Virus record (IMG/VR): IMGVR_UViG_3300030329_004891
Span: 1 to 36,798 of that record
DNA length: 36,798 bases
Reading direction: 5' to 3' (one strand)
Source of the DNA: a virus
Both the position numbers and the translations under genes were made by a program. Positions 23,367-36,798 of the stretch are shown here, piece by piece (the stretch's first letter is position 1; every line of letters starts with the position of its first letter). The notes under the pieces are model-generated. The model made no database searches. It saw only the letters and a program-made list of their open reading frames with translations, and was not told the DNA's origin.

Positions 23367-23476
23367 AATATTGGATTTTAGGGGTATACACTGAAAGAGA
23401 TTGGGCAAAAGCTTGGTTACGTTCGGGAGGAAGTATTTAATAAAACTTTTACAAAAGTTAACGTTTAAGTATTCAA

Positions 23477-23504
23477 AAGACCCTCTTCCAGAGGGTCTTT
23501 TTTA
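23477..23504 (+). terminator. intrinsic terminator in the intergenic region
   Basis: AAGACCCTC (23477-23485), loop TTCCA, GAGGGTCTT (23491-23499), then TTTTTA. Nine perfect base pairs and a U-tract. It ends a rightward transcript that carries no convincing gene, so a short RNA may be made here. The A-run on the left side allows it to work leftward as well. Confidence 0.85.
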
Positions 23505-23717
23505 TGTATTATTAACTAATTAGTTTACATAATTAACCAAAAAGTGTTTTTAAATATTTTAAAGAAATCAAAAAATTAATGTTTCTTCTTTGAAAAAAAT
23601 ATTTTATAGTAAGTTTTAGGGGGTATTTATAAGGAGTAAAAATAAAAATATTAAATTAAAAACCATTAAAATGTTGTTAATTCAACTCGTTAAAAATTTA
23701 AAAACAAGGATTAAAAA

Positions 23718-24782
23718 ATGCATAGTGAAATAAAAAGTATTCAAGGTTTAGTAACGCATTGTAAGGATTTACAACAATATCAAAATGATTTAATTGTAGA
23801 TACTAAAAAAGTGCATATGATAAATGATTCTGATATAGAAATTCCTGATTATGGAATTTACAAAATTAGTAATCACGCTTCAAGTCAAATAGCGTCTAGG
23901 TTAAGAATACCGAAACGTTTTTTTGATGAATTACCAAACAGAGTTCCAGGTTTAAAACAAAAATTAGTTAATGATTTAATGCATACAGAATCAGAAAAAA
24001 GAATGCTAAGATTAGATGAAACTCCTAATGATTTTTCTTTAAGAGCATTTCTTTCTGATAGGTATAGGAGATGGGATAATTTAGATGCTTTACAAGCAAT
24101 GTTGCCGACATTACAAAAATTATATGAAAGCAATACTAAATTTACTATTAAATCAGCAAACGTTTCAGACAAAAGAATGTATTTACAAATTATGTTTGAT
24201 GAAAGAGAAGAAAATATAACTGTGAATGATCCTGTTTGTTATGGAGTAATTGTTACTAATTCAGAAATTGGAGCTGGTGCCTGGAATATTAGTGAAATGG
24301 TTTGGCGTTTAGTTTGTTCAAATGGAATGATTAGTGGAAGTTTAAGCAGAAGACATCATGTAGGTAATCGTTTGGAAATAGGAGAAAATGGAGTTTCTGA
24401 ATATTTATCTAATGAAACTTTAGATGCAGATCTAGAAGCACAAAGATTAACTATTAGAGATATTTTTAAAAATGCTGTATCTAATGCAGATCATTTTCAA
24501 AAATTAATAGAACCATTAAAAGAAGCTGTAGGAGTAAAAATAGAAAAACCTAAAGCAACTATAGAAAAGCTTTCAAAGAAATTTGCGTTTAATGAAGAAA
24601 CCACAGATAAATTTTTAGAAAACTTTTTTTCAGAAGGTGATATGAGCAAATGGGGGGTTATTAATGGAGTAACTGCTTTAGCTCATCAAACTAATAATCC
24701 AGATGAACAATATTCTTTTGAGCAAACAGGTGGACAGCTTGCATCTATGAACCAGAAAGAGTGGATGCAATTCGTAAATTAG
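23718..24782 (+). CDS. DUF932 family protein
   Basis: A 354-residue protein of the DUF932 (phage/plasmid TIGR03299-like) family: GIYKISNHASSQIASRLRIP, RAFLSDRYRRWDNLDALQAM, then GVIVTNSEIGAGAWNISEMV and WRLVCSNGMISG are family landmarks. DUF932 proteins are common next to phage and plasmid single-strand annealing genes. Their biochemical role is not settled. It heads the SSB-ERF-exonuclease block and is closed by its own strong terminator, so it can be expressed separately from the recombination genes. Confidence 0.85.
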   Translation: MHSEIKSIQGLVTHCKDLQQYQNDLIVDTKKVHMINDSDIEIPDYGIYKISNHASSQIASRLRIPKRFFDELPNRVPGLKQKLVNDLMHTESEKRMLRLDETPNDFSLRAFLSDRYRRWDNLDALQAMLPTLQKLYESNTKFTIKSANVSDKRMYLQIMFDEREENITVNDPVCYGVIVTNSEIGAGAWNISEMVWRLVCSNGMISGSLSRRHHVGNRLEIGENGVSEYLSNETLDADLEAQRLTIRDIFKNAVSNADHFQKLIEPLKEAVGVKIEKPKATIEKLSKKFAFNEETTDKFLENFFSEGDMSKWGVINGVTALAHQTNNPDEQYSFEQTGGQLASMNQKEWMQFVN

Positions 24783-27336: not shown

Positions 27337-27552
27337 ATGAGTGAAAACCGAGGTGAAAGAGTAAAGAAAAAGACAATAAAAATTATTCAAGGTATAGAAG
27401 ACTTGTATGGTGTCGTATATTTAGAACCTCATGTAATAAAATCCGAGCTTCTAAAAATAAAAAAACATTTAGATGGATGTCTTGTTGGAATGAAGTACAC
27501 AGAAAAGGAAGCTAAAAAAACCCAAGACAGTCATGGTAGAAGATTGAATTAG
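27337..27552 (+). CDS. small hypothetical protein
   Basis: A 71-residue charged protein (MSENRGERVKKKTIKIIQGI, then LLKIKKHLDGCLVGMKYTEK) with one predicted long helix and a polar C-terminus (KTQDSHGRRLN). It follows the HNH-like gene by one base and ends the rightward block before the terminator at 27627. No family recognised. Confidence 0.5.
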   Translation: MSENRGERVKKKTIKIIQGIEDLYGVVYLEPHVIKSELLKIKKHLDGCLVGMKYTEKEAKKTQDSHGRRLN

Positions 27553-27626
27553 CGTTGCTAATTATAAAAATTTTAATAAGGAGATTTATTTGGAAAGATT
27601 GAGATAATCGTTTTTACTATCTGAGC

Positions 27627-27660
27627 AAAAGAGCCATCCGAAAGGATGGCTCTTTTATAT
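27627..27660. terminator. bidirectional terminator, 13-bp stem, GAAA loop
   Basis: AAAAGAGCCATCC (27627-27639), loop GAAA, GGATGGCTCTTTT (27644-27656), then ATAT. It lies between the end of the rightward recombination block and the end of the leftward 93-residue gene, and has U-rich ends in both directions. Confidence 0.92.
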
Positions 27661-27672
27661 ACTTCTTAAAGA

Positions 27673-27954
27673 TTAACCGTTAAGTGATTCTAATTCTTCG
27701 TAACATTTATCTAGAATTGAATAGATATCTTTACTAGATCCATGCTGTAAACTAGCAACTGTTTGTATAATTAAAAACACTTGCTCCATTTGCTTGTCTG
27801 TCAATTCTTTTATTTTTGACAATGTCATTACTACGTCATTAGCAGACTTTTCATCTATAAGTCTTTTGCATTCTCGTTCCAAAAGATTTATTTTCCGTTT
27901 TTGGCTTTTGATTATATCTTTATGTAAATCTATAACAGCTGATTCTGCTTTCAT
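27673..27954 (-). CDS. small helical leftward protein
   Basis: A 93-residue, mainly helical protein: VIDLHKDIIKSQKRKINLLE then CKRLIDEKSANDVVMTLSKI, probably a coiled coil. It is the second gene of the leftward unit that begins at 28329. The leader between the two genes has three hairpins, and the ATG has the site AAGGAGATACAAAAA, close to the shared leader block of the other leftward genes. No family recognised. By place it belongs to the early or control region. Confidence 0.65.
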   Translation of the reverse strand: MKAESAVIDLHKDIIKSQKRKINLLERECKRLIDEKSANDVVMTLSKIKELTDKQMEQVFLIIQTVASLQHGSSKDIYSILDKCYEELESLNG

Positions 27955-28020
27955 TTTTTGTATCTCCTTGTGGTGTATTCCACTACCCTACCGTAGTAGG
28001 GTTTCGGCCTTCTGGCCTCT
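27955..28020 (-). promoter_or_regulatory. structured 5' leader with three hairpins, one UACG tetraloop
   Basis: Read leftward this 66-base gap contains GGCC-AGAA-GGCC (28017-28006), then ACCCTAC-TACG-GTAGGGT (28002-27985), a 7-bp stem closed by a C-G pair on a UACG loop (an especially stable UNCG loop), then GTGG-AATACA-CCAC (27983-27970) directly before AAGGAG. It is clearly more GC-rich than its surroundings. It may set mRNA stability or control access to the ribosome site. Confidence 0.55.
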
Positions 28021-28329
28021 TCAGGTGGAAAGGTGTCTTTCTGAACTATGGTCTCGGTCAAATTGCGTGTTATTTTTATAGGACTGCGTTATTGTATAAA
28101 AGCGGGAACACGCATTTACCTTTGATCTTCGCATAGCTACAAACTTTATTCCCTTAGAGGTTAGCGGTGCAGTTCTCCAACCTGGGCCAGTTTTGTATCG
28201 TCTGTCTCGACTAATTGGTGTTATCTGTCCTTTATGGCTATTGTACCAGTAAACATAGTACTTGCCGTTTACCTCTGACATCTGTAATGATGTTGCTTCG
28301 GTTACGTGATATTCTTTTAGTATATTCAT
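28021..28329 (-). CDS. leftward protein divergent from the Xre regulator
   Basis: A 102-residue basic protein with no known family. It contains NGKYYVYWYNSHKGQITPIS then RDRRYKTGPGWRTAPLTSKG, a beta-rich, Arg/Lys-rich part that could bind nucleic acid. It is transcribed from promoter copy A, with the ribosome site GTACTTAAGGAGGTAC five bases before ATG. Lying back to back with the Xre-type gene, it takes the place of a cro-like or early-switch gene, but it does not look like a helix-turn-helix protein. Confidence 0.65.
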   Translation of the reverse strand: MNILKEYHVTEATSLQMSEVNGKYYVYWYNSHKGQITPISRDRRYKTGPGWRTAPLTSKGIKFVAMRRSKVNACSRFYTITQSYKNNTQFDRDHSSERHLST

Positions 28330-28334
28330 TTTTT

Positions 28335-28385
28335 GTACCTCCTTAAGTACAAACTAAATATATCATGTATACTAAAGAGTGTATA
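28335..28385 (-). promoter_or_regulatory. leftward promoter/operator copy A with ribosome-site block
   Basis: Read leftward: the dyad TATACACTCTTTAGTATACA (28385-28366), -10-like ATGATATAT, and GTACTTAAGGAGGTAC (28350-28335) five bases before ATG 28329. The ribosome-site block is two bases longer than in the other copies (GTACTTGGAGGTAC). This copy lies between divergent genes, next to the Xre regulator. Confidence 0.75.
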
Positions 28386-28413
28386 CCCTTTATTATAAAA
28401 ATATAGGTTATGG

Positions 28414-28442
28414 TTTACAAAAAACAAGATTTAAACTAAATT
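28414..28442 (+). promoter_or_regulatory. possible promoter of the Xre regulator gene
   Basis: TTTACA (28414-28419), 17-base spacer, TAAATT (28437-28442). The start point would fall close to the ribosome site AGGAG, giving a very short leader, so it is uncertain. It lies beside operator copy A. Confidence 0.4.
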
Positions 28443-28458
28443 TTGTATAGGAGATATT

Positions 28459-28734
28459 ATGATAGGAAAAAAGAAAAAAACAGATAAAGAAATAATAGCT
28501 AAAAAAGAATTGAATTCTGAATTGTTTGCTTATAGTAAATATATTGAAGCCTATAATTTTGTTAAAACTTTTAAACCAGATTTAAAAAAAATTAGATTGG
28601 CAAAAGGTTACACACAGCAAACATTAGCTGATTTAATAGGTGTAACTAAAAGTTATATTTCTAAAGTAGAAAATGGTGGTTCTGGTTTAACTGCTGATTT
28701 TTTAGATAAAATTATAAAATTATTTTTGAAATAA
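28459..28734 (+). CDS. Xre/Cro-type helix-turn-helix regulator
   Basis: A 91-residue protein. The C-terminal 55 residues form an HTH_3 domain: LKKIRLAKGYTQQTLADLIG then VTKSYISKVENGGSGLTADF, with the recognition helix around VTKSYISKVENG. The basic N-terminal extension (MIGKKKKTDKE) and helix are of unknown use. No peptidase or oligomerisation domain is present, so it resembles a Cro-type repressor more than CI. It has a good ribosome site (TAGGAG) and is divergent from promoter copy A. It is the best candidate to bind the 20-bp dyads. Confidence 0.85.
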   Translation: MIGKKKKTDKEIIAKKELNSELFAYSKYIEAYNFVKTFKPDLKKIRLAKGYTQQTLADLIGVTKSYISKVENGGSGLTADFLDKIIKLFLK

Positions 28735-28735
28735 T

Positions 28736-29476
28736 TTGGCAGAATTATTTGATGAGATGGGAAAGTTTGTTACTATTCCCCATGCAATAATTAACGATAA
28801 TAACATTAATTCCTATGATCTTGCTGTTTATGTTGTGTTGATGAAACACATCAAAAGCAATAATAGACTTGTTTTCCCTGGACTTAAAACAATAGCTAAT
28901 TTGACAAAATGCTCCAGGGATAGAGTCATAAAAAGTATTGTTAATTTAGAACTACAAAAATGGCTAAAAGTAGACAGGAAAGCAGGAGGAGTTAATACCT
29001 ACCATTTAATTGTTAATCAGAACCAGTCGATCTCAGCGACTACTACCAGTCGATCTGAACGACTACCACCAGTCGACGTGGTCGACCCTAAGAAGAATAA
29101 TAATAAGAAGAATATATATAATGATATAGCAGATGAAGTTTTTGAATATTTAATTAATAAAAGTGGCAGATCAAGATTAAGAAAAACAAAGAATAGTTTG
29201 TTACCAATTATTAAGGCATTGAAAAACAAATACAGTAAAGAAGACCTATTTCACATAATAAAAGTGAAATGTTCAGAATGGAAAAACGATGATGTATTTA
29301 AGAAATATTTGCATCCATCAACTTTGTTTGCAAACAGGAATATAGATAAATATCTATCTCAAGAAGTTTCACAAGAAAAAACAATTAAAGATGTAGTATG
29401 TAAAAATTGTGGAAGTAAAAGTTTTATTGGATCGGGTGATAGAAGGAGGTGTTTAAAGTGCGAGAAGAAAATATAA
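28736..29476 (+). CDS. replication initiator with C-terminal phg_2220-like domain
   Basis: A 246-residue protein. The N-terminal winged-helix domain (KFVTIPHAIINDNNINSYDL, LKTIANLTKCSRDRVIKSIV) resembles phage replisome organizers. A low-complexity linker (about 95-125) holds the iterons at DNA level. The C-terminal part CSEWKNDDVFKKYLHPSTLF then ANRNIDKYLS is the phg_2220 pattern, followed by a zinc ribbon CKNCGS...CLKC. It would bind the origin and load DnaB, encoded next. Start TTG at 28736, one base after the regulator stop, without a clear ribosome site; ATG 28757 is an alternative. Confidence 0.82.
   Translation: MAELFDEMGKFVTIPHAIINDNNINSYDLAVYVVLMKHIKSNNRLVFPGLKTIANLTKCSRDRVIKSIVNLELQKWLKVDRKAGGVNTYHLIVNQNQSISATTTSRSERLPPVDVVDPKKNNNKKNIYNDIADEVFEYLINKSGRSRLRKTKNSLLPIIKALKNKYSKEDLFHIIKVKCSEWKNDDVFKKYLHPSTLFANRNIDKYLSQEVSQEKTIKDVVCKNCGSKSFIGSGDRRRCLKCEKKI
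29023..29137 (+). other. candidate replication origin: three 23-bp iterons and AT-rich stretch
   Basis: Inside the initiator gene are tandem units starting at 29023, 29046 and 29069, exactly 23 bases apart. Each begins CCAGTCGA; the first two share CCAGTCGATCT and CGACTAC, and the third is CCAGTCGACGTGGTCGACCC. Each unit holds an inverted repeat (AGTCG ... CGACT, or GTCGAC ... GTCGAC). They are far more GC-rich than the rest of the gene. A nearly pure A/T/G-purine tract of AAT and AAG repeats follows (29091-29137). Lambda has the same plan: iterons inside gene O followed by an AT-rich region. Confidence 0.7.
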
Positions 29477-30714
29477 ATGATATTGTTTTAGGTTTGCTTA
29501 TTAAATATAAAAAAGTTAGAGAGCAATTCATTAATGATTTGAATCAAGAGTTGTTTGAATTGGAAAGAGAAAAAGTACTCTTTGCTACTATTCAAGAATT
29601 AACATTACAAGATATAGACATAGAAATACCAATAATAAATGAACATTTAATAATAAAATATAAAGAAAATATAAATACTGTTTGTCCACCTTCGTGGTTT
29701 GCAAGTTTAACAGACTCTTTAATATCATCTGCTAATGCAAAGTTTTATATAGATAGATTATTTGATTTTAGAGAAGAAAAAAGAATAAAGGAGGTTTTAG
29801 AACTTGCCACGAAACATAGTTGGAATACTGAACAAATTGAGAGTGCATTACAAAAAATTGTAAAACCTAAATTTAAATATATTGATGGTAAGGAATTATC
29901 ATTATTAACTGGTAACGCTATTGATGATGCTGCTAAAAAGGGTGAGTTATATATAAAAGCAAGTTTGGGTTTGAAGTCAATTGATTCTATGCTTGGTGGT
30001 TTTAAGCCTGGAGAATTAATAATTATTGGTGCAAGACCAAGTGTAGGAAAAACTGCTGTTGGATTACAGTCTGCATTGCATATGACAATGAGTAAAAATT
30101 TATCAGTTGCTTTTTTTAGTTTAGAAATGTCAGCCCAAAGTTTAGGCATAAGACTTTTATCTATGTGTACAGGTATTAATCAAAGAAAGTTAATGTATAA
30201 TCCACAAATAAAAGACATAGAAAAAGCTACAGAAGTTTTACGAACCATATACGAAGCTAATCTATATGTAGCTACCAATAGCATAAAAACTATAAACATT
30301 AGAAAGATGTCACATCAATTAAAAAAAAATAAAAAATTAGATGCTGTTATTGTAGATTATATACAACTGATTACTCCTTCAGTAATAAAAGCAAATAGAA
30401 CTGAACAAGTATCGCAAATATCACGAGACTTGAAACTTATTGCAGAAGAATTGGAGGTGCCAATTATTGCACTTTCACAAGTAAGGAGGGAAAGCGATCA
30501 GGAAAAAAGACCACCTAAGTTAAGCGATTTAAGAGAGTCGGGATCATTAGAACAGGATAGTGATATAGTTTTATTATTACATAGAGAAAGGAATCCCATC
30601 ACTGGAGATTTGAGTGAAGAGGGTACTTTGAGTGTGAGTAAAAATAGGCATGGTGAAACAGGTAGTATTTTGGTACACTTTAATCCTGACAAAGTGAGGT
30701 ATGAAGAAAAGTGA
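29458..30714 (+). CDS. dnaB: replicative DNA helicase, DnaB-like
   Basis: A 418-residue helicase. The N-terminal helical domain (DIVLGLLIKYKKVREQFIND) is followed by the RecA-type motor: FKPGELIIIGARPSVGKTAV (Walker A), AVIVDYIQLI (Walker B), then PIIALSQVRRESDQEKRPPK and LSDLRESGSLEQDSDIVLLL (motifs H3/H4). A GTG at 29458, eight bases after AAGGAGG inside the initiator gene, is the best start. It unwinds DNA ahead of the fork and is the partner of the initiator. Confidence 0.94.
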   Translation: MREENINDIVLGLLIKYKKVREQFINDLNQELFELEREKVLFATIQELTLQDIDIEIPIINEHLIIKYKENINTVCPPSWFASLTDSLISSANAKFYIDRLFDFREEKRIKEVLELATKHSWNTEQIESALQKIVKPKFKYIDGKELSLLTGNAIDDAAKKGELYIKASLGLKSIDSMLGGFKPGELIIIGARPSVGKTAVGLQSALHMTMSKNLSVAFFSLEMSAQSLGIRLLSMCTGINQRKLMYNPQIKDIEKATEVLRTIYEANLYVATNSIKTINIRKMSHQLKKNKKLDAVIVDYIQLITPSVIKANRTEQVSQISRDLKLIAEELEVPIIALSQVRRESDQEKRPPKLSDLRESGSLEQDSDIVLLLHRERNPITGDLSEEGTLSVSKNRHGETGSILVHFNPDKVRYEEK

Positions 30715-31100
30715 CACCATCGGCAAGAACTAAACATTTATTAACATCTCAAAATTGGACAGTAGGAACTGTACAAAGATTTGTACCTCAAGCAAAAAGA
30801 TTCTTTGATTTATATGGTTTTATTGATTTGTGCTGTATTCATAAAATTCATGGTTTTTTAGCAGTCCAAGTTACAGGTGGAAATAATGGAAGTGCAAGAA
30901 TAAAAAAAATTATAAATAATGCATCAGCATATTTATGGCTTCAAGCGGGAGGTAAAATAGAGGTGCATGATTGGAGATATTTAAAAAAATTAAAAAAATG
31001 GGATGTAGCAATTAATAAAATTGAAAAAAATGATTTTCCAGAAAAAATAAGAAAAGGAGAATATATAGATGAGCAATTCATTAAGAACAAAAAAAAGTAA
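30711..31100 (+). CDS. putative PD-(D/E)XK-like nuclease
   Basis: A 129-residue protein. TVGTVQRFVPQAKRFFDLYG, FIDLCCIHKIHGFLAVQVT and YLWLQAGGKIEVHDWRYLKK resemble small Holliday-junction-resolvase or VSR-like nucleases, with a probable active-site Asp (FIDL) and a Q-x-T in place of E-x-K. The replaced Lys makes catalysis uncertain. It starts with GTG overlapping the DnaB stop, so it belongs to the replication block. Confidence 0.5.
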   Translation: MTPSARTKHLLTSQNWTVGTVQRFVPQAKRFFDLYGFIDLCCIHKIHGFLAVQVTGGNNGSARIKKIINNASAYLWLQAGGKIEVHDWRYLKKLKKWDVAINKIEKNDFPEKIRKGEYIDEQFIKNKKK

Positions 31101-31377
31101 AACAGCAAATAAGTTTTATGAAAAAAGAGCTGTAGATTTTAAAGTAGCTACAAAAGTAAAAATAACAAATCCTAAAAACAATTATGAAAGAGTAGATCAA
31201 TGCACGGAAATGATTATTAATTTAGCAGATAAGGCATATGGCACTGATCCTATTCCCGGTAAATATCTGCATCAAAAATTAAAAAAAGCAAAAAATCATT
31301 TAGAAGATTTAATGAAAGCTTTAGAAGCAGAAGCAAGAGATAGCTTTCATAAAAACAAATACTGGGATGAAGTTTAA
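31069..31377 (+). CDS. small hypothetical protein
   Basis: A 102-residue charged protein with a helical C-terminal half (KLKKAKNHLEDLMKALEAEA). No family recognised. The start, with ribosome site AAAGGAG, lies within the end of the previous gene, and its stop lies 11 bases inside the next frame, so it is tightly packed in the operon. Confidence 0.55.
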   Translation: MSNSLRTKKSKTANKFYEKRAVDFKVATKVKITNPKNNYERVDQCTEMIINLADKAYGTDPIPGKYLHQKLKKAKNHLEDLMKALEAEARDSFHKNKYWDEV

Positions 31378-31579
31378 AGTGCCTACATTTGAACAAATGG
31401 TAAGAGAAAGTGACAAAAGAAAAGAAAGATTATGTCATCACAGGTTGAAAAATTACTTCAAGACTGACAGCAGATATTATGATGAAAGTAATCGATGTAA
31501 AAATAAAGTAAGAAATGGTGATGTTTATTGTCAAGAGCATAAAAATATTTATCATCATGATGATGCGAGGGGACAATAA
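31367..31579 (+). CDS. small C...C-x2-H zinc-motif protein
   Basis: A 70-residue protein. The core is ESNRCKNKVRNGDVYCQEHK: Cys, about twelve residues, Tyr-Cys-x2-His, a frequent minimal zinc-binding motif in small phage and bacterial proteins. An additional LCHHRL lies upstream. The C-terminus HHDDARGQ is polar. The same C...C-x2-H core recurs in the proteins at 22393 and 33596, so it may be part of a small family here. Confidence 0.55.
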   Translation: MKFKVPTFEQMVRESDKRKERLCHHRLKNYFKTDSRYYDESNRCKNKVRNGDVYCQEHKNIYHHDDARGQ

Positions 31580-31581
31580 AG

Positions 31582-32379
31582 ATGAAAGTATTAATAGTGT
31601 TGCAAGCAAGAAATGCAAGTACAAGATTTAAAAATAAAAGTTTATATCCTATAGGCAATATTTCGGCAATATCTCATCATTTAGAAAAAATGGTAAAATT
31701 AAAAGAGGTGTGTCAAAACTTAATAAAAATAGATTTAGGATTATGTACTACAGGTTTTAGTGAAGATGATATTCTAGTTCATTATGCTAAAAAGTTCCAT
31801 GTGAAACAAATAGTACGCGGAAAACCTTTACATTTATGGGAGCAATTTTATGATATTGTTCCTGGATATAAATTTTTTATGCGAATTTGTGGGGATCAGC
31901 CGTTTTTTAATTTGAAAATGGCAGAACATTTATTAAATGTTTTGTATCAAAATGAAGAGCATGATTATTATTCTTGGGTAACAAATAATAATATACCTAT
32001 TATGCAAACAAAAATAGGTTTAGGAACTGAAATAGTTAGAAGTTCAAAATTAAATACAAGAGTACAATTTAATCAAAATTATATGGAACATTTAACTCCT
32101 AAGTTTTATCTGGAAAAAGGACACAAAACTAAATTTATAGAAATACCAGAATTTATAACAAAATCAAAAGTATCTTTAAGTATTGATTATTTAGAAGATT
32201 GGATCATAGCTAATAAATGTTATTATGAATTAAAAGAAAAAACACAAGATTTAAAAGTTTTGTCACAATGGTTTATGAAAAATAAAATAGCTAATTCTTT
32301 ATTACAAGGAAGAAACAAAGCAAAAGAAAAATACAGGGGAAATAAATATAAAGGGGAAAAATGGGAACTTACATTATAG
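31582..32379 (+). CDS. SpsF-like cytidylyltransferase (CMP-nonulosonate type)
   Basis: A 265-residue protein. The N-terminus LIVLQARNASTRFKNKSLYP is the nucleotide-binding Q-A-R-x-x-S-x-R-F-K-x-K loop of SpsF/CMP-sugar synthetases, and FFMRICGDQPFFNLKMAEHL is the G-D-x-P-F motif. Its stop lies 19 bases inside the next gene, a NeuB-like synthase, so the two form one pathway: acid sugar made from PEP, then activated with CTP. The C-terminus is basic (SLLQGRNKAKEKYRGNK). The exact sugar is unknown. Confidence 0.75.
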   Translation: MKVLIVLQARNASTRFKNKSLYPIGNISAISHHLEKMVKLKEVCQNLIKIDLGLCTTGFSEDDILVHYAKKFHVKQIVRGKPLHLWEQFYDIVPGYKFFMRICGDQPFFNLKMAEHLLNVLYQNEEHDYYSWVTNNNIPIMQTKIGLGTEIVRSSKLNTRVQFNQNYMEHLTPKFYLEKGHKTKFIEIPEFITKSKVSLSIDYLEDWIIANKCYYELKEKTQDLKVLSQWFMKNKIANSLLQGRNKAKEKYRGNKYKGEKWELTL

Positions 32380-33461
32380 CTGAGATTGGTCAAAATCATA
32401 ACGGTAGTAAAAGAATAGCATCAGAATTAATAGATGTAGCAAGTCAAGAAATCATTCACGAAGGTGAAAAATTAAAAAAAGCAAATGCCGTAAAGTTTCA
32501 AATAAGAGATTTGGATTATGAATTAAATGAAGATTCTTATTTAAAAGAATATAAAAGTGTTAATGCTTTTGCAGATACTTACGGAAAGCATAGAGAATAT
32601 TTAGAAATTCCAATAGAAGAATATAAAGATTTAGCAGAAGAAGCAAGAGATAAAGGGTTAGATGTTGTTGTTACTGTTTGCAGCCCAACTATTATAGAAA
32701 AAATAAAAAAAATAATAAAACCTGATGCCTGGAAAGTAGCAAGTAGGGATTTAGGAAACATTCCATTATTAGAAGCTATTAATGAAGTGGACCCAAAAAA
32801 AGTTATTTTAAGTTCTGGTATGCATCAATTAGCAGATATAGAAGAAGCTGTTTACAGATTAGTGCTGCCAGAAATTATAGGAATCCTGCATTGTATAAGT
32901 GCTTACCCTACTAAGTATGAAGATTTAAATTTACGGGGTATGGAACAAATTAAAGAAAATTTTAAATCATATAATGGAACAACATTTAAAATAGGTTTTT
33001 CAGATCATACAGCAGGAGTTTTAGCTCCATCTGTTGCTGTAGCTTTAGGAGCACAAATTATAGAAAAACACATAACTCTAGATCATAGTATGAAAGGATC
33101 AGACCATTTTGGAAGTATGAATAGGGAAGGCTGGTTTAGGGTTGTTAGGGATATTAGAAATACTGAAAAAGCTATTTCTTTATGTCAAAGATTAAATGAC
33201 GGAATAAAAAATCCAGAAGAACAAAAAACATGGAACAAAATAGGTAGGGTTGCCTGTTATAAAAACAATATTAATAAAGGACAATATTTGGAAATAGAAG
33301 ATGTAATAATGTTATCACCTCCATCAAATGGACATTTAACAGGTATATCATGGGAAGATGCTTATAAATTTAACAATAAACCTTTACAAAAAGATGTAAA
33401 AGAAAATGAAATAATAATCCCTGAGCTTCACTTTCCTTTTGTTTCAAAGTATTATAAGTAA
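32361..33461 (+). CDS. NeuB/SpsE-like nonulosonic acid synthase
   Basis: A 366-residue NeuB-family enzyme: YIIAEIGQNHNGS at the N-terminus, AVKFQIRDLD, LHCISAYPTKYEDLNLRGME, FKIGFSDHTAGVLAPSVAVA and AQIIEKHITLDHSMKGSDHF, all hallmarks of the TIM-barrel that condenses PEP with an N-acetyl-hexosamine. The last 60 residues are a SAF-type antifreeze-like domain (GRVACYKNNINKGQYLEIED). It could make sialic, legionaminic or pseudaminic acid. No sugar-precursor gene is present, so it likely uses host intermediates. Ribosome site AAGGGG before the ATG. Confidence 0.9.
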   Translation: MGTYIIAEIGQNHNGSKRIASELIDVASQEIIHEGEKLKKANAVKFQIRDLDYELNEDSYLKEYKSVNAFADTYGKHREYLEIPIEEYKDLAEEARDKGLDVVVTVCSPTIIEKIKKIIKPDAWKVASRDLGNIPLLEAINEVDPKKVILSSGMHQLADIEEAVYRLVLPEIIGILHCISAYPTKYEDLNLRGMEQIKENFKSYNGTTFKIGFSDHTAGVLAPSVAVALGAQIIEKHITLDHSMKGSDHFGSMNREGWFRVVRDIRNTEKAISLCQRLNDGIKNPEEQKTWNKIGRVACYKNNINKGQYLEIEDVIMLSPPSNGHLTGISWEDAYKFNNKPLQKDVKENEIIIPELHFPFVSKYYK

Positions 33462-33508
33462 TTGATTAACTCTTGATACTTAGTTAGTATTTTAAAATAA
33501 TAAATAAA

Positions 33509-33594
33509 ACCAGAGCAGGTGGTTTTGCTGTACCTCCTTTATACTGCACTCATAATACCTCCTAAAGTATTTTCCATCTGCTCTGGTCTTTTTA
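33509..33594. terminator. long-loop inverted repeat, possible bidirectional terminator
   Basis: ACCAGAGCAG (33509-33518) and CTGCTCTGGT (33578-33587), a perfect 10-bp stem with a 59-base loop, followed rightward by CTTTTT and leftward by TTTATTTATT. It ends the SpsF-NeuB transcript. The loop, read leftward, contains AGGAGGT twice and a 12-codon frame (MENTLGGIMSAV), so it may be more than a terminator. Confidence 0.55.
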
Positions 33595-33595
33595 G

Positions 33596-33826
33596 ATGAA
33601 ACATAAAAATTATAAAGTAATAAGATGTAATAATGGATTTAAATGTGAAATGAAAAATTGTACTTCTTTTGCAAGATGGGTAATAACAGACTTGCAGGAA
33701 GAAAAAAACTTTAATAAAAAAGGATTAAATAATAATCCCATAGATACCTGGTTATGCCAGAAGCATTTTAAAATAATTTATCCAAAAATGTATAAAAAAA
33801 TAATAGACAAAAAACGAAAAACTTAA
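33596..33826 (+). CDS. small zinc-motif protein
   Basis: A 76-residue basic protein with MKNCTSFARWVITDLQ, a loop, then TWLCQKHFKIIYPKMYKKII: Cys...W-x-Cys-x2-His, the same arrangement as in the protein at 22393 (CGARANF...WWICGNHLDYLFP). The start lies directly after the inverted repeat and lacks a ribosome site, so expression may be leaderless or the hairpin may matter. No known family. Confidence 0.55.
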   Translation: MKHKNYKVIRCNNGFKCEMKNCTSFARWVITDLQEEKNFNKKGLNNNPIDTWLCQKHFKIIYPKMYKKIIDKKRKT

Positions 33827-33877
33827 TAATATATCAACATATTTAAATAACCAGTTAAATATGTGCCTTGTCTTACT

Positions 33878-33905
33878 AACCCTGTCTTTTGGCAGGGTTT
33901 TTTAT
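33878..33905 (+). terminator. intrinsic terminator
   Basis: AACCCTG (33878-33884), loop TCTTTTGG, CAGGGTT (33893-33899), then TTTTTATTT. Ends the zinc-motif gene transcript. Confidence 0.82.
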
Positions 33906-33911
33906 TTAAGG

Positions 33912-33940
33912 TTTACATAATATAACCGATAATATAATAT
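33912..33940 (+). promoter_or_regulatory. sigma70-like promoter of the 40-residue gene
   Basis: TTTACA (33912-33917), then TATAAT at 33933 (15-base spacer) or TAATAT at 33935 (17 bases). It lies directly after a terminator and before a gene with a good ribosome site, so a promoter is expected here. Confidence 0.6.
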
Positions 33941-33960
33941 ACAAAATATAGGGGGTTATT

Positions 33961-34083
33961 ATGAACAATCTAATAAAAAAGTTATTCATAAAAAAATACA
34001 CAAAGAAAAAAGATTGCAGGTGGCAATTTGCAAAATCCTACAAAGAACTCAACAACATAGACAACAAAGTAATTACAAAATAA
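33961..34083 (+). CDS. small basic protein (40 aa)
   Basis: A 40-codon frame, MNNLIKKLFIKKYTKKKDCR then WQFAKSYKELNNIDNKVITK, with 13 Lys or Arg. GGGGG lies six bases before ATG, and a promoter lies just upstream. The gene is framed by a promoter and a terminator, so it is likely real although short. It could bind nucleic acid. No family known. Confidence 0.55.
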   Translation: MNNLIKKLFIKKYTKKKDCRWQFAKSYKELNNIDNKVITK

Positions 34084-34102
34084 TTACTTATCTGTAATCT
34101 TT

Positions 34103-34162
34103 CCCCTACTTTTTAAGTATATTATGTAGTTTAAAACCTACTCTTAAAATGTAGGGGTTTTT
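34103..34162 (+). terminator. weak terminator with alternative pairing
   Basis: CCTAC (34137-34141), nine-base loop, GTAGG (34151-34155), then a U-rich run. CCCCTAC at 34103-34109 can pair instead with GTAGGGG (34151-34157), and CTAC with GTAG at 34125-34128. Two exclusive folds are the pattern of attenuators, but no ligand or leader peptide is evident. Confidence 0.4.
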
Positions 34163-34178
34163 ATATCTAGGGGGAGAT

Positions 34179-34469
34179 ATGAAAAAATTAATTATTATAT
34201 ATATGTTAGTAGCAACTATAGGAATAGCAGAAAGTTATTATCATTTTTACAACCAATTAACTTCAGAAGAAAAAATAATTTTTATTAAAGGAGTTATAAT
34301 TGGTTTTGACTCTGCTAAAATATTAATAGAACAAGATAAAGAAAGACAAATAAGACACATAGAAATAAAGTTACATAAATTTATTGGTGCTATAGATGAA
34401 GGAATAGAACCAGATTTAACTTCAAGAATAGTAAGAGAAATAAGAAAAATGATGTGGTTTTTAGAATAA
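34179..34469 (+). CDS. small exported or membrane-anchored protein
   Basis: A 96-residue protein with an N-terminal hydrophobic segment (MKKLIIIYMLVATIGIAESY) that looks like a signal peptide (possible cleavage near GIA|ES), followed by a helical, charged domain (QDKERQIRHIEIKLHKFIGA). It has the site GGGGGAGAT before ATG. No family recognised. It is the last rightward gene before the leftward cassettes and shares a bidirectional terminator with the first of them. Confidence 0.6.
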   Translation: MKKLIIIYMLVATIGIAESYYHFYNQLTSEEKIIFIKGVIIGFDSAKILIEQDKERQIRHIEIKLHKFIGAIDEGIEPDLTSRIVREIRKMMWFLE

Positions 34470-34470
34470 A

Positions 34471-34500
34471 AAAGCCCACTCGAAAGAGTGGGCTTTTAAT
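34471..34500. terminator. bidirectional terminator, GAAA loop
   Basis: AAAGCCCACTC (34471-34481), GAAA, GAGTGGGCTTT (34486-34496), 11 perfect pairs with U-tracts both ways. Ends the rightward gene at 34469 and the leftward gene at 34517. Confidence 0.93.
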
Positions 34501-34516
34501 AACTTATTAATAAGTT

Positions 34517-34819
34517 TTATTGTAAATTGCCTGTAGGTTCTTCTGTCCAATGATCAAAATCATCTTGGTCCAAATTATCCATGTTGTAGTGTCTGCTTAA
34601 TAAATTTTCCATTTTTATTTCTACTTTGTTTTTACTTAGTTTTAATACTTTTTCAATGTTAGCTATTTCTAATAGTTCTTTTTCTAAATTTGCTAAATGT
34701 TTTTTAACAGCATCAGCTACAGCAGTTTCATCAGCTAAATGATTTTTAGCTAAAGTAAAATCAAGTGCATATCCTTTTAATCCAACTTCATCATTAATTA
34801 AAGAATTATTTTTTTCCAT
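34517..34819 (-). CDS. leftward cassette protein (100 aa)
   Basis: A 100-residue acidic helical protein: GYALDFTLAKNHLADETAVA then HLANLEKELLEIANIEKVLK, ending in an acidic tail. No family known. The start is ATG 34819, six bases after GTACTTGGAGGTAC. The longer frame to 34870 only translates the promoter leader. Single-gene unit with its own promoter (copy B) and terminator. Confidence 0.72.
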   Translation of the reverse strand: MEKNNSLINDEVGLKGYALDFTLAKNHLADETAVADAVKKHLANLEKELLEIANIEKVLKLSKNKVEIKMENLLSRHYNMDNLDQDDFDHWTEEPTGNLQ

Positions 34820-34825
34820 TTTTTT

Positions 34826-34883
34826 GTACCTCCAAGTACTTTTAAACTTAATTAAATATATCATATACACTAAAAGGTGTATA
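34826..34883 (-). promoter_or_regulatory. leftward promoter/operator copy B
   Basis: Read leftward: TATACACCTTTTAGTGTATA (34883-34864), -10-like ATGATATAT, TTAATTAAG, then GTACTTGGAGGTAC (34839-34826). The right arm is a perfect complement of the consensus TATACACT; the left arm differs at one base. Confidence 0.8.
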
Positions 34884-34923
34884 CCCTTTTATTAAAAATA
34901 ATTAGCATTTAAGCAAAAAAAAA

Positions 34924-34950
34924 CCTACTCAAAAGAGTAGGCTTTTAATT
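34924..34950 (-). terminator. leftward terminator
   Basis: CCTACTC-AAAA-GAGTAGG (34924-34941), with an A-run on the left giving a U-tract leftward, and TTTT on the right. Ends the 109-residue gene. Confidence 0.85.
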
Positions 34951-34969
34951 TAATTATTTTATATTTATG

Positions 34970-35299
34970 TTAAAATGGAGAACCATCCCACCATAATGGG
35001 TTATTTCTAACATTTTCATCAAGGGCTTGAGATTTTAAATACTTTTTAGAAATTTTGTCTATTTTTTTATCAAAATCTGTAAATACAGTTTTTACTAATC
35101 GTGTTAAATCTGCATTAATTTTTTTACCTAATGAATTTGAATGTTCAATAACTTCATTTGTTACTGGATTAACAGAATTATAAACACTCATAGTTGAAGA
35201 AAAAGCTTTTACCATTTGCAATTGTTCTATAGTAAGACTTGGAAATTTTATTTCCAATAAGTTTTTTATAATTTCTTGTTTTTGTTTTTTTTCTGACAT
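34970..35299 (-). CDS. leftward cassette protein (109 aa)
   Basis: A 109-residue protein, mainly helical and Lys-rich: EIIKNLLEIKFPSLTIEQLQ then ADLTRLVKTVFTDFDKKIDK, ending NNPLWWDGSPF. No family known. ATG three bases after GTACTTGGAGGTAC. Its own promoter (copy C) and terminator. Confidence 0.72.
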   Translation of the reverse strand: MSEKKQKQEIIKNLLEIKFPSLTIEQLQMVKAFSSTMSVYNSVNPVTNEVIEHSNSLGKKINADLTRLVKTVFTDFDKKIDKISKKYLKSQALDENVRNNPLWWDGSPF

Positions 35300-35302
35300 T
35301 GT

Positions 35303-35356
35303 GTACCTCCAAGTACTTTATACATTTAATATATCATAAACACTAAAGAGTGTACA
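35303..35356 (-). promoter_or_regulatory. leftward promoter/operator copy C
   Basis: Read leftward: TGTACACTCTTTAGTGTTTA (35356-35337), ATGATATAT, then GTACTTGGAGGTAC (35316-35303). Arms ACACT and AGTGT pair exactly. The distance between dyad and ribosome-site block is four bases shorter than in B, D and E. Confidence 0.8.
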
Positions 35357-35395
35357 TAGTTATTTAAAAATAATTCATATTTAAGCAAAAAAAAA

Positions 35396-35420
35396 CCCAC
35401 TCTTTCGAGTGGGATTCTTT
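35396..35420 (-). terminator. leftward terminator, GAAA loop
   Basis: CCCACTC-TTTC-GAGTGGG (35396-35413); leftward it reads CCCACTC-GAAA-GAGTGGG followed by a U9 run. Ends the 81-residue gene. Confidence 0.9.
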
Positions 35421-35431
35421 TGAAGATTTGT

Positions 35432-35677
35432 TTAAAAATCCATATCTACAGCTAAGCCTTGGGCTATATGCTGTAAAAAGTGATGAATATTACCGTTAGC
35501 AAAATCAAGCTGTCTTAAAATATTTTCAATTTGCTTGGCTTCGTCTCCTTTTGTTCTTTTAATTGCGTCTATTACAGTAGTAGATGGTATTATGTTTGCT
35601 GTTCCTTTTGCTGAAGTAACTGTATAAGTTTTTTCTGAAAGATTTTTTTCTGCAAAGAAAGTTTCAAAGAATGTCAT
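35432..35677 (-). CDS. leftward cassette protein (81 aa)
   Basis: An 81-residue protein (MTFFETFFAEKNLSEKTYTV; VIDAIKRTKGDEAKQIENIL; FANGNIHHFLQHIAQG) with one beta and two helix regions. No family known. The start is ATG 35677, five bases after GTACTTGGAGGTAC, not the upstream ATG 35692 which lies inside the leader. Own promoter (copy D) and terminator. Confidence 0.72.
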   Translation of the reverse strand: MTFFETFFAEKNLSEKTYTVTSAKGTANIIPSTTVIDAIKRTKGDEAKQIENILRQLDFANGNIHHFLQHIAQGLAVDMDF

Positions 35678-35682
35678 TTTTT

Positions 35683-35740
35683 GTACCTCCAAGTACTTAT
35701 TAACTTAATTAAATATATCATGTTAACTAAAAAGTGTACA
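35683..35740 (-). promoter_or_regulatory. leftward promoter/operator copy D
   Basis: Read leftward: TGTACACTTTTTAGTTAACA (35740-35721), ATGATATAT, TTAATTAAG, then GTACTTGGAGGTAC (35696-35683). The right arm is the least conserved of the set. Confidence 0.8.
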
Positions 35741-35780
35741 TACTTTTATTAAAAATAATTAGTATTTAAGCAAAAAAAAA

Positions 35781-35805
35781 CCCACTCTTTCAAGTGGGTT
35801 TTTAA
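35781..35805 (-). terminator. leftward terminator
   Basis: CCCACT-CTTTCA-AGTGGG (35781-35798), A9 on the left giving a U9 run leftward, TTTTT on the right. Ends the 85-residue gene. Same family of sequence as the terminators at 34471 and 35396. Confidence 0.88.
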
Positions 35806-35819
35806 TTTAATTATTTACA

Positions 35820-36077
35820 TTAATCTCTTTCGTAAAATATTCCAATCGTACTTCCATAATAATCTTTCCATCCAGTTTCATGAATAGAACTTAATGCGAC
35901 TGCTTCCCTCCAAGTTGGTAAAGCGTCTTCATCTGGATATTCTTTTTCCCATTCTATAGTAGCAATGTCATTATTTATCATAATAATCTTTCCATGTCCT
36001 TCTGAAATTCCTGCACCATAATCAGCCCTAACCTTAGGTAATACTTCACTTAAAATTGTTGATTTGTGTTGTTCCAT
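35820..36077 (-). CDS. leftward cassette protein (85 aa)
   Basis: An 85-residue protein (EGHGKIIMINNDIATIEWEK; WREAVALSSIHETGWKDYYG), beta-rich and acidic. No family known. The start is ATG 36077, three bases after GTACTTGGAGGTAC. The longer frame to 36248 translates the promoter leader, giving the same IYLIKFKSTWRYK seen before the 34.5 kb gene, which shows that this is shared control DNA, not protein. Confidence 0.72.
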   Translation of the reverse strand: MEQHKSTILSEVLPKVRADYGAGISEGHGKIIMINNDIATIEWEKEYPDEDALPTWREAVALSSIHETGWKDYYGSTIGIFYERD

Positions 36078-36080
36078 TTT

Positions 36081-36138
36081 GTACCTCCAAGTACTTTTAA
36101 ATTTAATTAAATATATCATAAACACTAAATAGTGTATA
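36081..36138 (-). promoter_or_regulatory. leftward promoter/operator copy E
   Basis: Read leftward: TATACACTATTTAGTGTTTA (36138-36119), ATGATATAT, TTAATTAAA, then GTACTTGGAGGTAC (36094-36081). The inner arms ACACTA and TAGTGT are perfect. It lies between the leftward gene and the rightward gene at 36193. Confidence 0.82.
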
Positions 36139-36192
36139 TAAGTATTAGCTTTTTTATTGAAAAAAATAATAAAAAATAATAAAATAGGATAT

Positions 36193-36471
36193 ATGTTTAC
36201 AGAGTTTATTGAAGGTTTTAAAGCGATGGAAAACTCTGCAAAATACACAGGTAAAATTAAAAATCAATTTCAAATTAAATATTGTAATAAGCATTTTAAA
36301 GTTATAAAAGCAATGGAAAAAGGTGATCCTGGGTTAGCTTTAGAATTTGAAACTTATGCAAAATATAAGATGAATAAAACAGGTTGTTCTATATGTCAAT
36401 ATATAGCTCAAGTAGAGTGGGGGCATAAAGAATATATGAGGGGGGGTATTGCAGAAACCAGACAGAACTAA
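36193..36471 (+). CDS. small Cys/His metal-motif protein
   Basis: A 92-residue protein with IKYCNKHFKVIKAMEKGD then NKTGCSICQYIAQVEWGHKE: a C-x2-H pair and a C-x2-C pair, probably one zinc site. The start at ATG 36193 has AGGA upstream; the TTG at 36157 lies in the control region. It overlaps the HNH gene by 23 bases. Possibly related to HNH cofactors, but no family is certain. Confidence 0.6.
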   Translation: MFTEFIEGFKAMENSAKYTGKIKNQFQIKYCNKHFKVIKAMEKGDPGLALEFETYAKYKMNKTGCSICQYIAQVEWGHKEYMRGGIAETRQN

Positions 36472-36798
36472 AACAGCTAACTTTACTTATAGAAAATATA
36501 ATCATGAATGGAAAAAAATACGGAATAGCTATATTAAAAGAAATCCTAAATGTGTGAGGTGTAAACATCCTGCAGAATTAGTAGATCATATAATTACTTT
36601 ATTTGATGGAGGAACACATCACGAAAGCAACTTGCAAAGCTTATGTAGAATCTGTCATGGTATAAAAACTAAATATGATCTAATTAAAAGATATCCAAAG
36701 AGAAAACCGTCCAGGCTACCTAAAGAAGTTATTAGTGTTACTCATGTAGACGATAGGGGGGAAAGGGGGGTAAAATCTCTAGAGGGATTCTCAACACA
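36449..36798 (+). CDS. HNH endonuclease, partial at right end
   Basis: A frame of 116 codons running off the window. It begins with TTG just after GAGGGGGGG. Visible motifs: NPKCVRCKHPAELVDHIITL (first Cys pair and the D-H), then HHESNLQSLCRICHGIKTKY (Asn and second Cys pair), a classical zinc-HNH. Such genes precede TerS in cos-type phages, and the enzyme helps terminase cut cos. Joining the right end to the left end keeps the frame open for 13 more codons to a TAA at 41-43, giving about 130 residues. The last part is GVKSLEGFSTQ. Confidence 0.88.
   Translation, partial: MQKPDRTKTANFTYRKYNHEWKKIRNSYIKRNPKCVRCKHPAELVDHIITLFDGGTHHESNLQSLCRICHGIKTKYDLIKRYPKRKPSRLPKEVISVTHVDDRGERGVKSLEGFST
36757..36798 (+). 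other. G-run region, possible cos-proximal site
   Basis: GATAGGGGGGAAAGGGGGG then TAAAATCTCTAGAGG lies at the right end inside the HNH frame, and a similar G9 run (30-38, GGAGGGGGGGGGTATAAAAA) lies near the left end, before the first gene. G-rich runs with short inverted repeats between HNH and TerS are commonly where cos lies. No direct proof of the cleavage position. Confidence 0.35.

What the first reader, a model, noticed from the sequence alone, without database searches (positions are those of the whole stretch)
28335..36138. Five copies of one leftward promoter/operator: a phage regulon
Copies at 28366-28385, 34864-34883, 35337-35356, 35721-35740 and 36119-36138 share the 20-bp dyad TATACACTNTTTAGTGTATA (8-bp arms, 4-bp spacer) followed by ATGATATATT(T)AATTAA, all facing leftward and all just before a small unknown gene. 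The dyad overlaps the place of a -35 box, so the bound protein would act as repressor, or as activator replacing the missing -35. This is a coordinated regulon of small genes with no known families, a good place to look for host-takeover or anti-defence proteins.
Basis: seen in the sequence. Interest (0 to 1): 0.85.

Follow-up and report, generated by a model that had tools for sequence, protein, structure and literature searches.

The report
Repeated phage promoter-operators for small genes
A bacterial virus carries five near-identical promoters, each in front of a small gene and probably switched off together by one viral regulator; other viral sequences carry relatives of one of these genes on similarly repeated promoters of different sequence.

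Summary
The five sites are real, at the stated places, and far beyond chance. Each is a promoter, -35 T[AG]TACA, 17 bp, extended -10 TGATATATT, with a 20-bp imperfect dyad covering the -35 and most of the spacer. So the -35 is not missing, and the geometry points to repression. Four sites head tandem single-gene cassettes (promoter/operator, SD, small gene, terminator). The fifth lies beside a Cro-like gene (28459-28734) that precedes replication genes. A sixth dyad (23510-23529) and a weak one at the Cro-like gene's own promoter (28430-28449) also score. Among solved structures that protein is nearest to restriction-modification controller proteins, whose site GACT/AGTC resembles the ACT-N4-AGT core. 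One cassette gene belongs to phrog_6004. Its relatives in viral contigs often sit on reiterated, phage-specific promoters (28 of 52 against 57 of 273 control genes), but not in genome contigs (1 of 22 against 9 of 138). Two such contigs carry their own dispersed dyads over the -35 or spacer. Best reading: a repressor-controlled early regulon, new in sequence and build, of a known kind.

The parts
28357..28385 (-). promoter/operator copy 1: dyad 28366-28385 plus extended -10; before gene 28021-28329
34855..34883 (-). promoter/operator copy 2: dyad 34864-34883; before gene 34517-34819
35328..35356 (-). promoter/operator copy 3: dyad 35337-35356; before gene 34970-35299
35712..35740 (-). promoter/operator copy 4: dyad 35721-35740; before gene 35432-35677
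36110..36138 (-). promoter/operator copy 5: dyad 36119-36138; before gene 35820-36077
23510..23529 (.). sixth operator-like dyad TATTAACTAATTAGTTTACA, just after a terminator (23475-23501) and upstream of the rightward genes that begin at 23718 (unknown-function protein, SSB, Erf, exonuclease); no matching -10 beside it
   Evidence: score 17.4, next 10.3; reached in 1 of 60 and 0 of 300 Markov genomes; terminator; genes
28430..28449 (.). weak operator-like site over the -10 of a candidate rightward promoter (TTTACA-17-TAAATT, 28414-28442) of the Cro-like gene
   Evidence: score 10.3, rank 7 in the window; 1.4 such sites expected per random genome, 43 of 3000 random 73-bp stretches reach it; promoter
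28459..28734 (+). 91-aa HTH_3 (Cro/C1, XRE) protein, candidate regulator
   Evidence: Pfam HTH_3 3.7e-14; solved relatives C.BclI, C.AhdI, C.Esp1396I
28021..28329 (-). 102-aa gene under copy 1, no known family
27673..27954 (-). 93-aa gene downstream of 28021-28329, no promoter copy of its own, perhaps same transcript (inferred); DUF6495 match 4e-4 is below the curated cut-off
34517..34819 (-). 100-aa cassette gene, no known family
34970..35299 (-). 109-aa cassette gene, no known family
35432..35677 (-). 81-aa cassette gene, family phrog_6004 (function unknown)
   Evidence: E 2.3e-11 over 77 of 81 residues; homologues
35820..36077 (-). 85-aa cassette gene, no known family (DUF6679 match 0.019, below cut-off)
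34470..34497 (-). terminator after 34517-34819
34919..34946 (-). terminator after 34970-35299
35396..35413 (-). terminator after 35432-35677
35776..35803 (-). terminator after 35820-36077
28736..30714 (+). replication initiator (28736-29476) and DnaB helicase (29449-30714) downstream of the Cro-like gene

Best explanation
A phage early regulon of stand-alone single-gene cassettes under one repressor. Shown by sequence: five leftward sigma70-type promoters with extended -10, a shared 20-bp dyad over the -35 and spacer, SDs, and terminators between four tandem cassettes. Inferred: on entry of the phage DNA host RNA polymerase fires these promoters at once. The 91-aa HTH protein at 28459, made with the replication initiator and DnaB from the divergent rightward operon, in the place of lambda Cro, binds the dyads as it accumulates, excludes polymerase and ends the burst. 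It probably also damps its own promoter and perhaps the operon that starts at 23.7 kb. The repeated intergenic cassette also makes small genes easy to gain, lose and swap.
For: Sites and chance level. Promoter anatomy and terminators. The dyad is centred about -25 with a normal 17-bp spacer, so a bound dimer should block polymerase (inference). Element conserved at 86% while flanks average 52-53%. Operator-like sites at the regulator's own divergent region and promoter. Among solved structures the regulator is nearest to R-M controller proteins, whose canonical site is GACT/AGTC (PMC4321490, passages), close to ACT-N4-AGT here; C.AhdI may repress when bound between -35 and -10 (PMC5282649, passages). 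A like build with unrelated dyads in two other viral contigs: 13 sites against a null mean of 0.37, and 11 against 0.22. phrog_6004 genes sit on repeated promoters in 28 of 52 viral loci against 57 of 273 controls.
Against: No binding or transcription data. The pairing of HTH protein and operator rests on position, likeness of the core and a weak site; about 1.4 sites as good as that one are expected per random genome. Other libraries rank other HTH groups above controller proteins: PADLOC HTH_VI and RmrA, HipB-like in NCBIfam. Elsewhere an HTH_3 gene is not the rule: 3 of 22 records with phrog_6004. The structure model of the HTH protein is poor (pLDDT 57.5). Column-shuffle support for the window dyad alone is modest (14 of 300 shuffles as good), and in 7 of 11 promoter sets no dyad stands out, so an operator is not general. 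The phrog_6004 link to repeated promoters is absent in genome contigs. No relative with the same operator was found, so covariation of protein and site could not be tested.
Confidence: 0.6

Rival explanations
1. Promoter-terminator shuffling cassettes like the PeSLs of T4-type phages: the repeats serve gene swapping by homologous recombination and early constitutive expression, and the dyad is incidental.
For: Terminator, promoter and SD are repeated between unrelated small genes; copies 2 and 4 are 93% alike for 40 bp upstream. In 7 of 11 reiterated promoter sets no dyad stands out.
Against: Spacer positions are conserved (ACT-N4-AGT), which constitutive promoters do not need; copies 1, 3 and 5 have diverged flanks yet keep them. 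An operator-like site occurs without the promoter at 23510. Not exclusive of the best explanation.
Confidence: 0.2
2. The dyad is an activator site replacing a weak -35.
For: The -35 is only 4 of 6.
Against: A 17-bp spacer and extended -10 make the promoter self-sufficient on paper; activators of MerR type use a 19-20 bp spacer (recalled). The dyad centre near -25 is inside the polymerase footprint.
Confidence: 0.08
3. A host regulator (for example of the SOS or a stress response) binds the dyad, so the phage genes follow host state.
For: Host regulators do control phage promoters in known cases (recalled); the host here is unknown.
Against: One site lies beside the only HTH_3 gene found among the proteins scanned with Pfam. 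The site with its -10 was not found in the genome collection, though a host operator need not carry that -10, so this is weak.
Confidence: 0.07
4. The sites act at RNA level: the conserved leader with a hairpin holding the SD is the regulated part.
For: All five leaders fold part of the SD into a small hairpin, -3.9 to -7.5 kcal/mol.
Against: The conserved dyad lies upstream of the expected start and would not be transcribed; four of the hairpins are weak (-3.9 to -4.0).
Confidence: 0.05

Closest known systems
SPbeta repeated element (SPBRE) and its repressor MrpR, Bacillus phage SPbeta (PMC10516654, passages)
   Same: One repressor, a repeated element in the promoter regions of about ten genes, most of unknown function; the repeats were seen 24 years before the binder.
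   Different: SPBRE motif is 15 bp and MrpR has a tyrosine-recombinase fold; here a 20-bp dyad over the -35 and an HTH_3 candidate. SPbeta is a prophage; no integrase was found among the proteins scanned here.
SAS/ESAS of cluster K mycobacteriophages (PMC3203893, passages)
   Same: Repeated inverted repeats before phage genes, the consensus differing between phages; function unknown.
   Different: ESAS arms are 17 bp with mostly 4-13 bp spacers, tied to a 13-bp start-associated sequence; here 8-4-8 and an explicit -35/-10.
PeSLs of T4-type phages (Arbiol 2010, Comeau 2014; texts not held; known from a citing passage in PMC4503421)
   Same: Promoter-terminator motifs said to mediate gene shuffling.
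   Different: No operator is part of PeSLs as far as I recall; the virus here is a 36.8-kb record.
Restriction-modification controller (C) proteins and C-boxes (PMC4321490, PMC5282649, passages)
   Same: Small HTH-only protein; core ACT...AGT inverted repeat; may repress by binding between -35 and -10.
   Different: C-box is GACT-N3-AGTC, usually two in tandem; here single sites with N4 and longer arms, and no restriction gene beside it.
lambda Cro and its operators (recalled)
   Same: HTH protein before O/P-like replication genes, divergent promoter, operators over promoters.
   Different: No CI-like partner among the proteins scanned; operators are dispersed over 13 kb as single sites.

Membership tests
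Phage dispersed repressor regulon (SPBRE/MrpR kind) | several near-identical intergenic elements in promoters | tested here: met
   five sites
Phage dispersed repressor regulon (SPBRE/MrpR kind) | a phage repressor shown to bind them | not testable with these tools
   no binding data; candidate only
R-M controller protein | small HTH_3 protein similar to solved C proteins | tested here: met
   C.BclI 8.1e-7, C.AhdI 7.5e-5, controller protein of entry 3clc and others 2.2e-4; but other HTH groups rank higher in PADLOC and NCBIfam
R-M controller protein | canonical GACT-N3-AGTC C-box pair upstream of its gene | tested here: not met
   ACT-N4-AGT single dyads; consensus read
R-M controller protein | restriction and modification genes in the same operon | tested here: not met
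   neighbours are replication genes; the DNA methyltransferase seen is at 613-1614
lambda-type Cro switch | HTH protein upstream of replication genes, divergent promoter with operator | tested here: met
lambda-type Cro switch | CI repressor and integrase | tested here: inconclusive
   not found in the 40 window proteins scanned with PHROGs; several ORFs were not scanned and the record may be incomplete
PeSL-type cassette | terminator plus promoter repeated between small genes | tested here: met
PeSL-type cassette | evidence of gene shuffling between close relatives | not tested
   no close relative found
ESAS | 17-bp inverted repeats and a 13-bp SAS | tested here: not met
   arms 8 bp; definition; I did not search for the SAS consensus itself
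phrog_6004 | profile match over the whole length | tested here: met
   35432-35677, E 2.3e-11, profile 8-88 of 88

The most novel reading that the evidence does not exclude
Operator-bearing single-gene cassettes are a widespread phage device, evolved with a different dyad in each phage lineage, for loading and timing accessory early genes; phrog_6004 is a conserved passenger, with no match to a known fold, whose repeated placement there marks it as an early host- or defence-facing protein.
Probability: 0.3. Interest if true: 0.72.

Novelty: new variant of a known kind. Interest (0 to 1): 0.52.

Why it matters
If right, the dyads give a way to list, from sequence alone, the genes a phage fires first and then shuts off, which are often small orphans that ordinary annotation cannot read. 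The family phrog_6004, found on such repeated promoters in varied viral contigs, becomes a concrete target for tests of early host or defence interaction. It would also tie a controller-protein-like regulator to a multi-site phage regulon.

Tried and rejected
Two site patterns in viral contigs found nothing, as did one in genome contigs. The SD motif gave 10 contigs with one match each, which I did not pursue. Megablast of the region against phage records: no match. DnaB and HTH protein as queries in viral contigs gave none and four weak relatives. Terminase gave 588 relatives, the best 80 kept, at 43-51% identity; phrog_6004 was absent from the 44 records I tested, 40 of them from that set. 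Four cassette-region genes (28329, 34819, 35299, 36077) had no relatives in the phage records or in the loci fetched by then.

The phrog_6004 association did not hold in genome contigs (1 of 22 against 9 of 138). A first, laxer control gave 31 of 52 against 121 of 729. The 52 are what was left of 80 viral loci after near-duplicates were dropped. In one search the controls, not the targets, were limited to genes with at least 50 bp of free upstream DNA; with the same limit on the targets the count is 27 of 44. Controls include other genes of the same arrays.

The dyad test used the window and 10 of the 19 loci printed, chosen by eye; some copies were left out (truncated, opposite-strand or poorly aligned ones in L093, L097, L100, L139), and the L097 copies were not all in register. 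The score limits were set after seeing the ranked list, and the sites used to build each matrix are among those counted.

Rejected: a missing -35; a MerR-like spacer; a known Rfam RNA (no match). The fold of phrog_6004 (pLDDT 86.7) matched nothing at E 0.001 or better. The HTH model was too poor to use. Three literature searches for the general idea listed no direct description; I saw listings only, and this is no proof of absence.
Full report
What is there. The window is a 36,798-base viral record with no named source. The pattern TRTACACYNTTTAGTDWWYATGATATAT occurs at 28358-28385, 34856-34883, 35329-35356, 35713-35740 and 36111-36138, all on the minus strand, and nowhere else in the window; 100 shuffles gave none. 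Each site reads -35 TATACA or TGTACA, 17 bp, then TG-A-TATATT, an extended -10. They are the only five of 43 sigma70-like sites in 27500-36798 with that extension. The 20-bp dyad occupies the -35 and the first 14 bp of the spacer. ATGs follow 56-64 bp after the dyad's 5' end.

Cassette build. At 34.5-36.1 kb four units stand in tandem, each made of promoter/operator, leader, SD, one small gene and a terminator (terminators at 34470-34497, 34919-34946, 35396-35413, 35776-35803). Mean pairwise identity is 86% over the 29-bp element, 52% over the 40 bp before and 53% over the 20 bp after it. Copies 2 and 4 are 93% alike upstream and look recently duplicated; copies 1, 3 and 5 are not. The ACT-N4-AGT core is paired fully in 4 of 5 sites, the outer arms less so. 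A search for the best dyad in column-shuffled copies reached the observed value in 14 of 300 trials, so the dyad as such has modest support from the five copies alone.

More sites. A symmetric matrix from the five sites finds a sixth dyad at 23510-23529 (17.4, next best 10.3). One of 60 Markov genomes and none of 300 reached that score. It lies just after a terminator and upstream of a rightward gene set with SSB, Erf and exonuclease, but has no matching -10 beside it. The seventh score, 28430-28449, overlaps the -10 of a candidate promoter (TTTACA-17-TAAATT) of the HTH gene. About 1.4 sites as good are expected per random genome, and 43 of 3000 random stretches of 73 bp reach it. The two are suggestive, not proof.

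The likely regulator. The 91-aa protein at 28459-28734 is HTH_3 (3.7e-14) and stands before a replication initiator and DnaB, the place of Cro in lambda (recalled). Its best solved relative is the controller protein C.BclI; an unspecified transcriptional regulator comes second, then C.AhdI and entries of C.Esp1396I (entry 4I6R is named as C.Esp1396I in PMC4041747, passages). Other libraries put other HTH groups first: PADLOC HTH_VI and RmrA before its controller models, a HipB-like model in NCBIfam. The canonical controller site is GACT/AGTC, consensus GACTTATAGTC (PMC4321490, passages), and C.AhdI may repress when bound between -35 and -10 (PMC5282649, passages). The likeness to ACT-N4-AGT is a lead: spacing and flanks differ, and there is no restriction operon, so I do not file it as a controller protein. 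No integrase or CI-like gene showed up among the 40 window proteins scanned with PHROGs; several ORFs were not scanned and the record may be incomplete.

Relatives of one cassette gene. Gene 35432-35677 is phrog_6004 (2.3e-11), with matches in 34 phage records: 29 of Mycobacterium, 4 of Methylophilales, 1 of an enterobacterium. An alignment-based scan of viral contigs gave 151 relatives, of which 80 were kept. Of the 52 left after near-duplicates were dropped, 28 have their 70-bp upstream region repeated before another ORF in the same locus, against 57 of 273 other genes with at least 50 bp of free upstream DNA (Fisher 3.4e-6); with the same limit on the targets it is 27 of 44 (1.3e-7). In 22 relatives from bacterial and archaeal genome contigs there is no such link (1 of 22 against 9 of 138). 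The repeats are phage-specific in sequence, from TTGACA-type to a TTTGG/TATCTTTG type (that the last looks like Bacteroidota promoters is recalled).

Dyads in other viral contigs. I tested 11 promoter sets: the window and 10 of the 19 loci printed, chosen by eye. Four showed a dyad that few column shuffles matched: the window (14 of 300), L097 (8), L093 (0) and L137 (5); the other seven did not (68 to 282 of 300). In the contig of L097 (72,540 bases) the dyad CCACnnCTAGCYAGnnGTGG, again 8-4-8, occurs 13 times at a score limit set after seeing the list (null mean 0.37, maximum 3 of 100), the four matrix sites included. Eight of the 13 run within 3 nt into TATNNT and then an ORF of 63-105 codons. 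In the contig of L137 a 16-bp dyad over the -35 occurs 11 times (null mean 0.22, maximum 2 of 100), four of them the identical copies used for the matrix; nine stand before ORFs of 42-108 codons, the other two lie inside a 283-codon open frame. ORFs there were called mechanically. The contig of L093 has five such sites and nothing else near their score. An HTH_3 gene was found in only 3 of 22 records with phrog_6004, so the regulator, where there is one, is not always of this type.

Reading. I take the five sites as operators over early promoters, with repression by the HTH protein as the likeliest mechanism (0.6). Shown: promoter and operator anatomy, cassettes, terminators, statistical excess, recurrence of the build. 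Inferred: timing, the binding protein, repression, and the gain and loss of cassettes by recombination.

Known kinds. The nearest are SPBRE/MrpR (PMC10516654, passages), ESAS (PMC3203893, passages; PMC12699233, passages) and PeSLs (known only from a citing passage in PMC4503421; both original papers were not held). This is a new variant of that kind: new operator, explicit promoter overlap, cassette form, and a recurrent passenger gene. The listings of three searches for a prior general description showed none.

Noticed in passing
31582-33461: A KdsB-like nucleotide-sugar transferase (2.1e-7, below cut-off) and a NeuB-like sialic-acid synthase (6.1e-63, below the curated cut-off) overlap in the rightward region; neither matches a PHROG.
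   Followed up: partly
33509-33587: A long stem (ACCAGAGCAG...CTGCTCTGGT) with a loop whose minus strand holds two SD motifs around a four-codon ORF (ATG AGT GCA GTA TAA), perhaps a decayed leftward cassette or leader.
   Followed up: no
28329-28357, 34819-34854, 35299-35327, 35677-35711, 36077-36109: All five leaders fold part of the SD into a hairpin (GTACTTGGAGGTAC in four; -3.9 to -4.0 kcal/mol in copies 2-5, -7.5 in copy 1), a possible second layer of control.
   Followed up: partly
L098 1124-6942, L100 3898-6714: A group of viral contigs repeats a TTGACA promoter with a conserved stretch like TGTATACTAAAGAAGTCA around and after the -10: ten places in L098, some partial, five in L100. Its ACT-N5-AGT core recalls the window's.
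   Followed up: partly
L151 8-7196: A contig whose phrog_6004 protein equals that of Mycobacterium phage Thonko repeats TTGACA...CGACnnnGTCGGGTAACTT-like promoters at eight places; its dyad did not pass the shuffle test (96 of 300).
   Followed up: partly
L210, L213, L216: phrog_6004 relatives lie in contigs binned as archaea, two of them as Lokiarchaeota; binning of viral DNA may be at fault.
   Followed up: no
108-1614: ParB-like protein and a DNA methyltransferase directly before the terminase genes.
   Followed up: no
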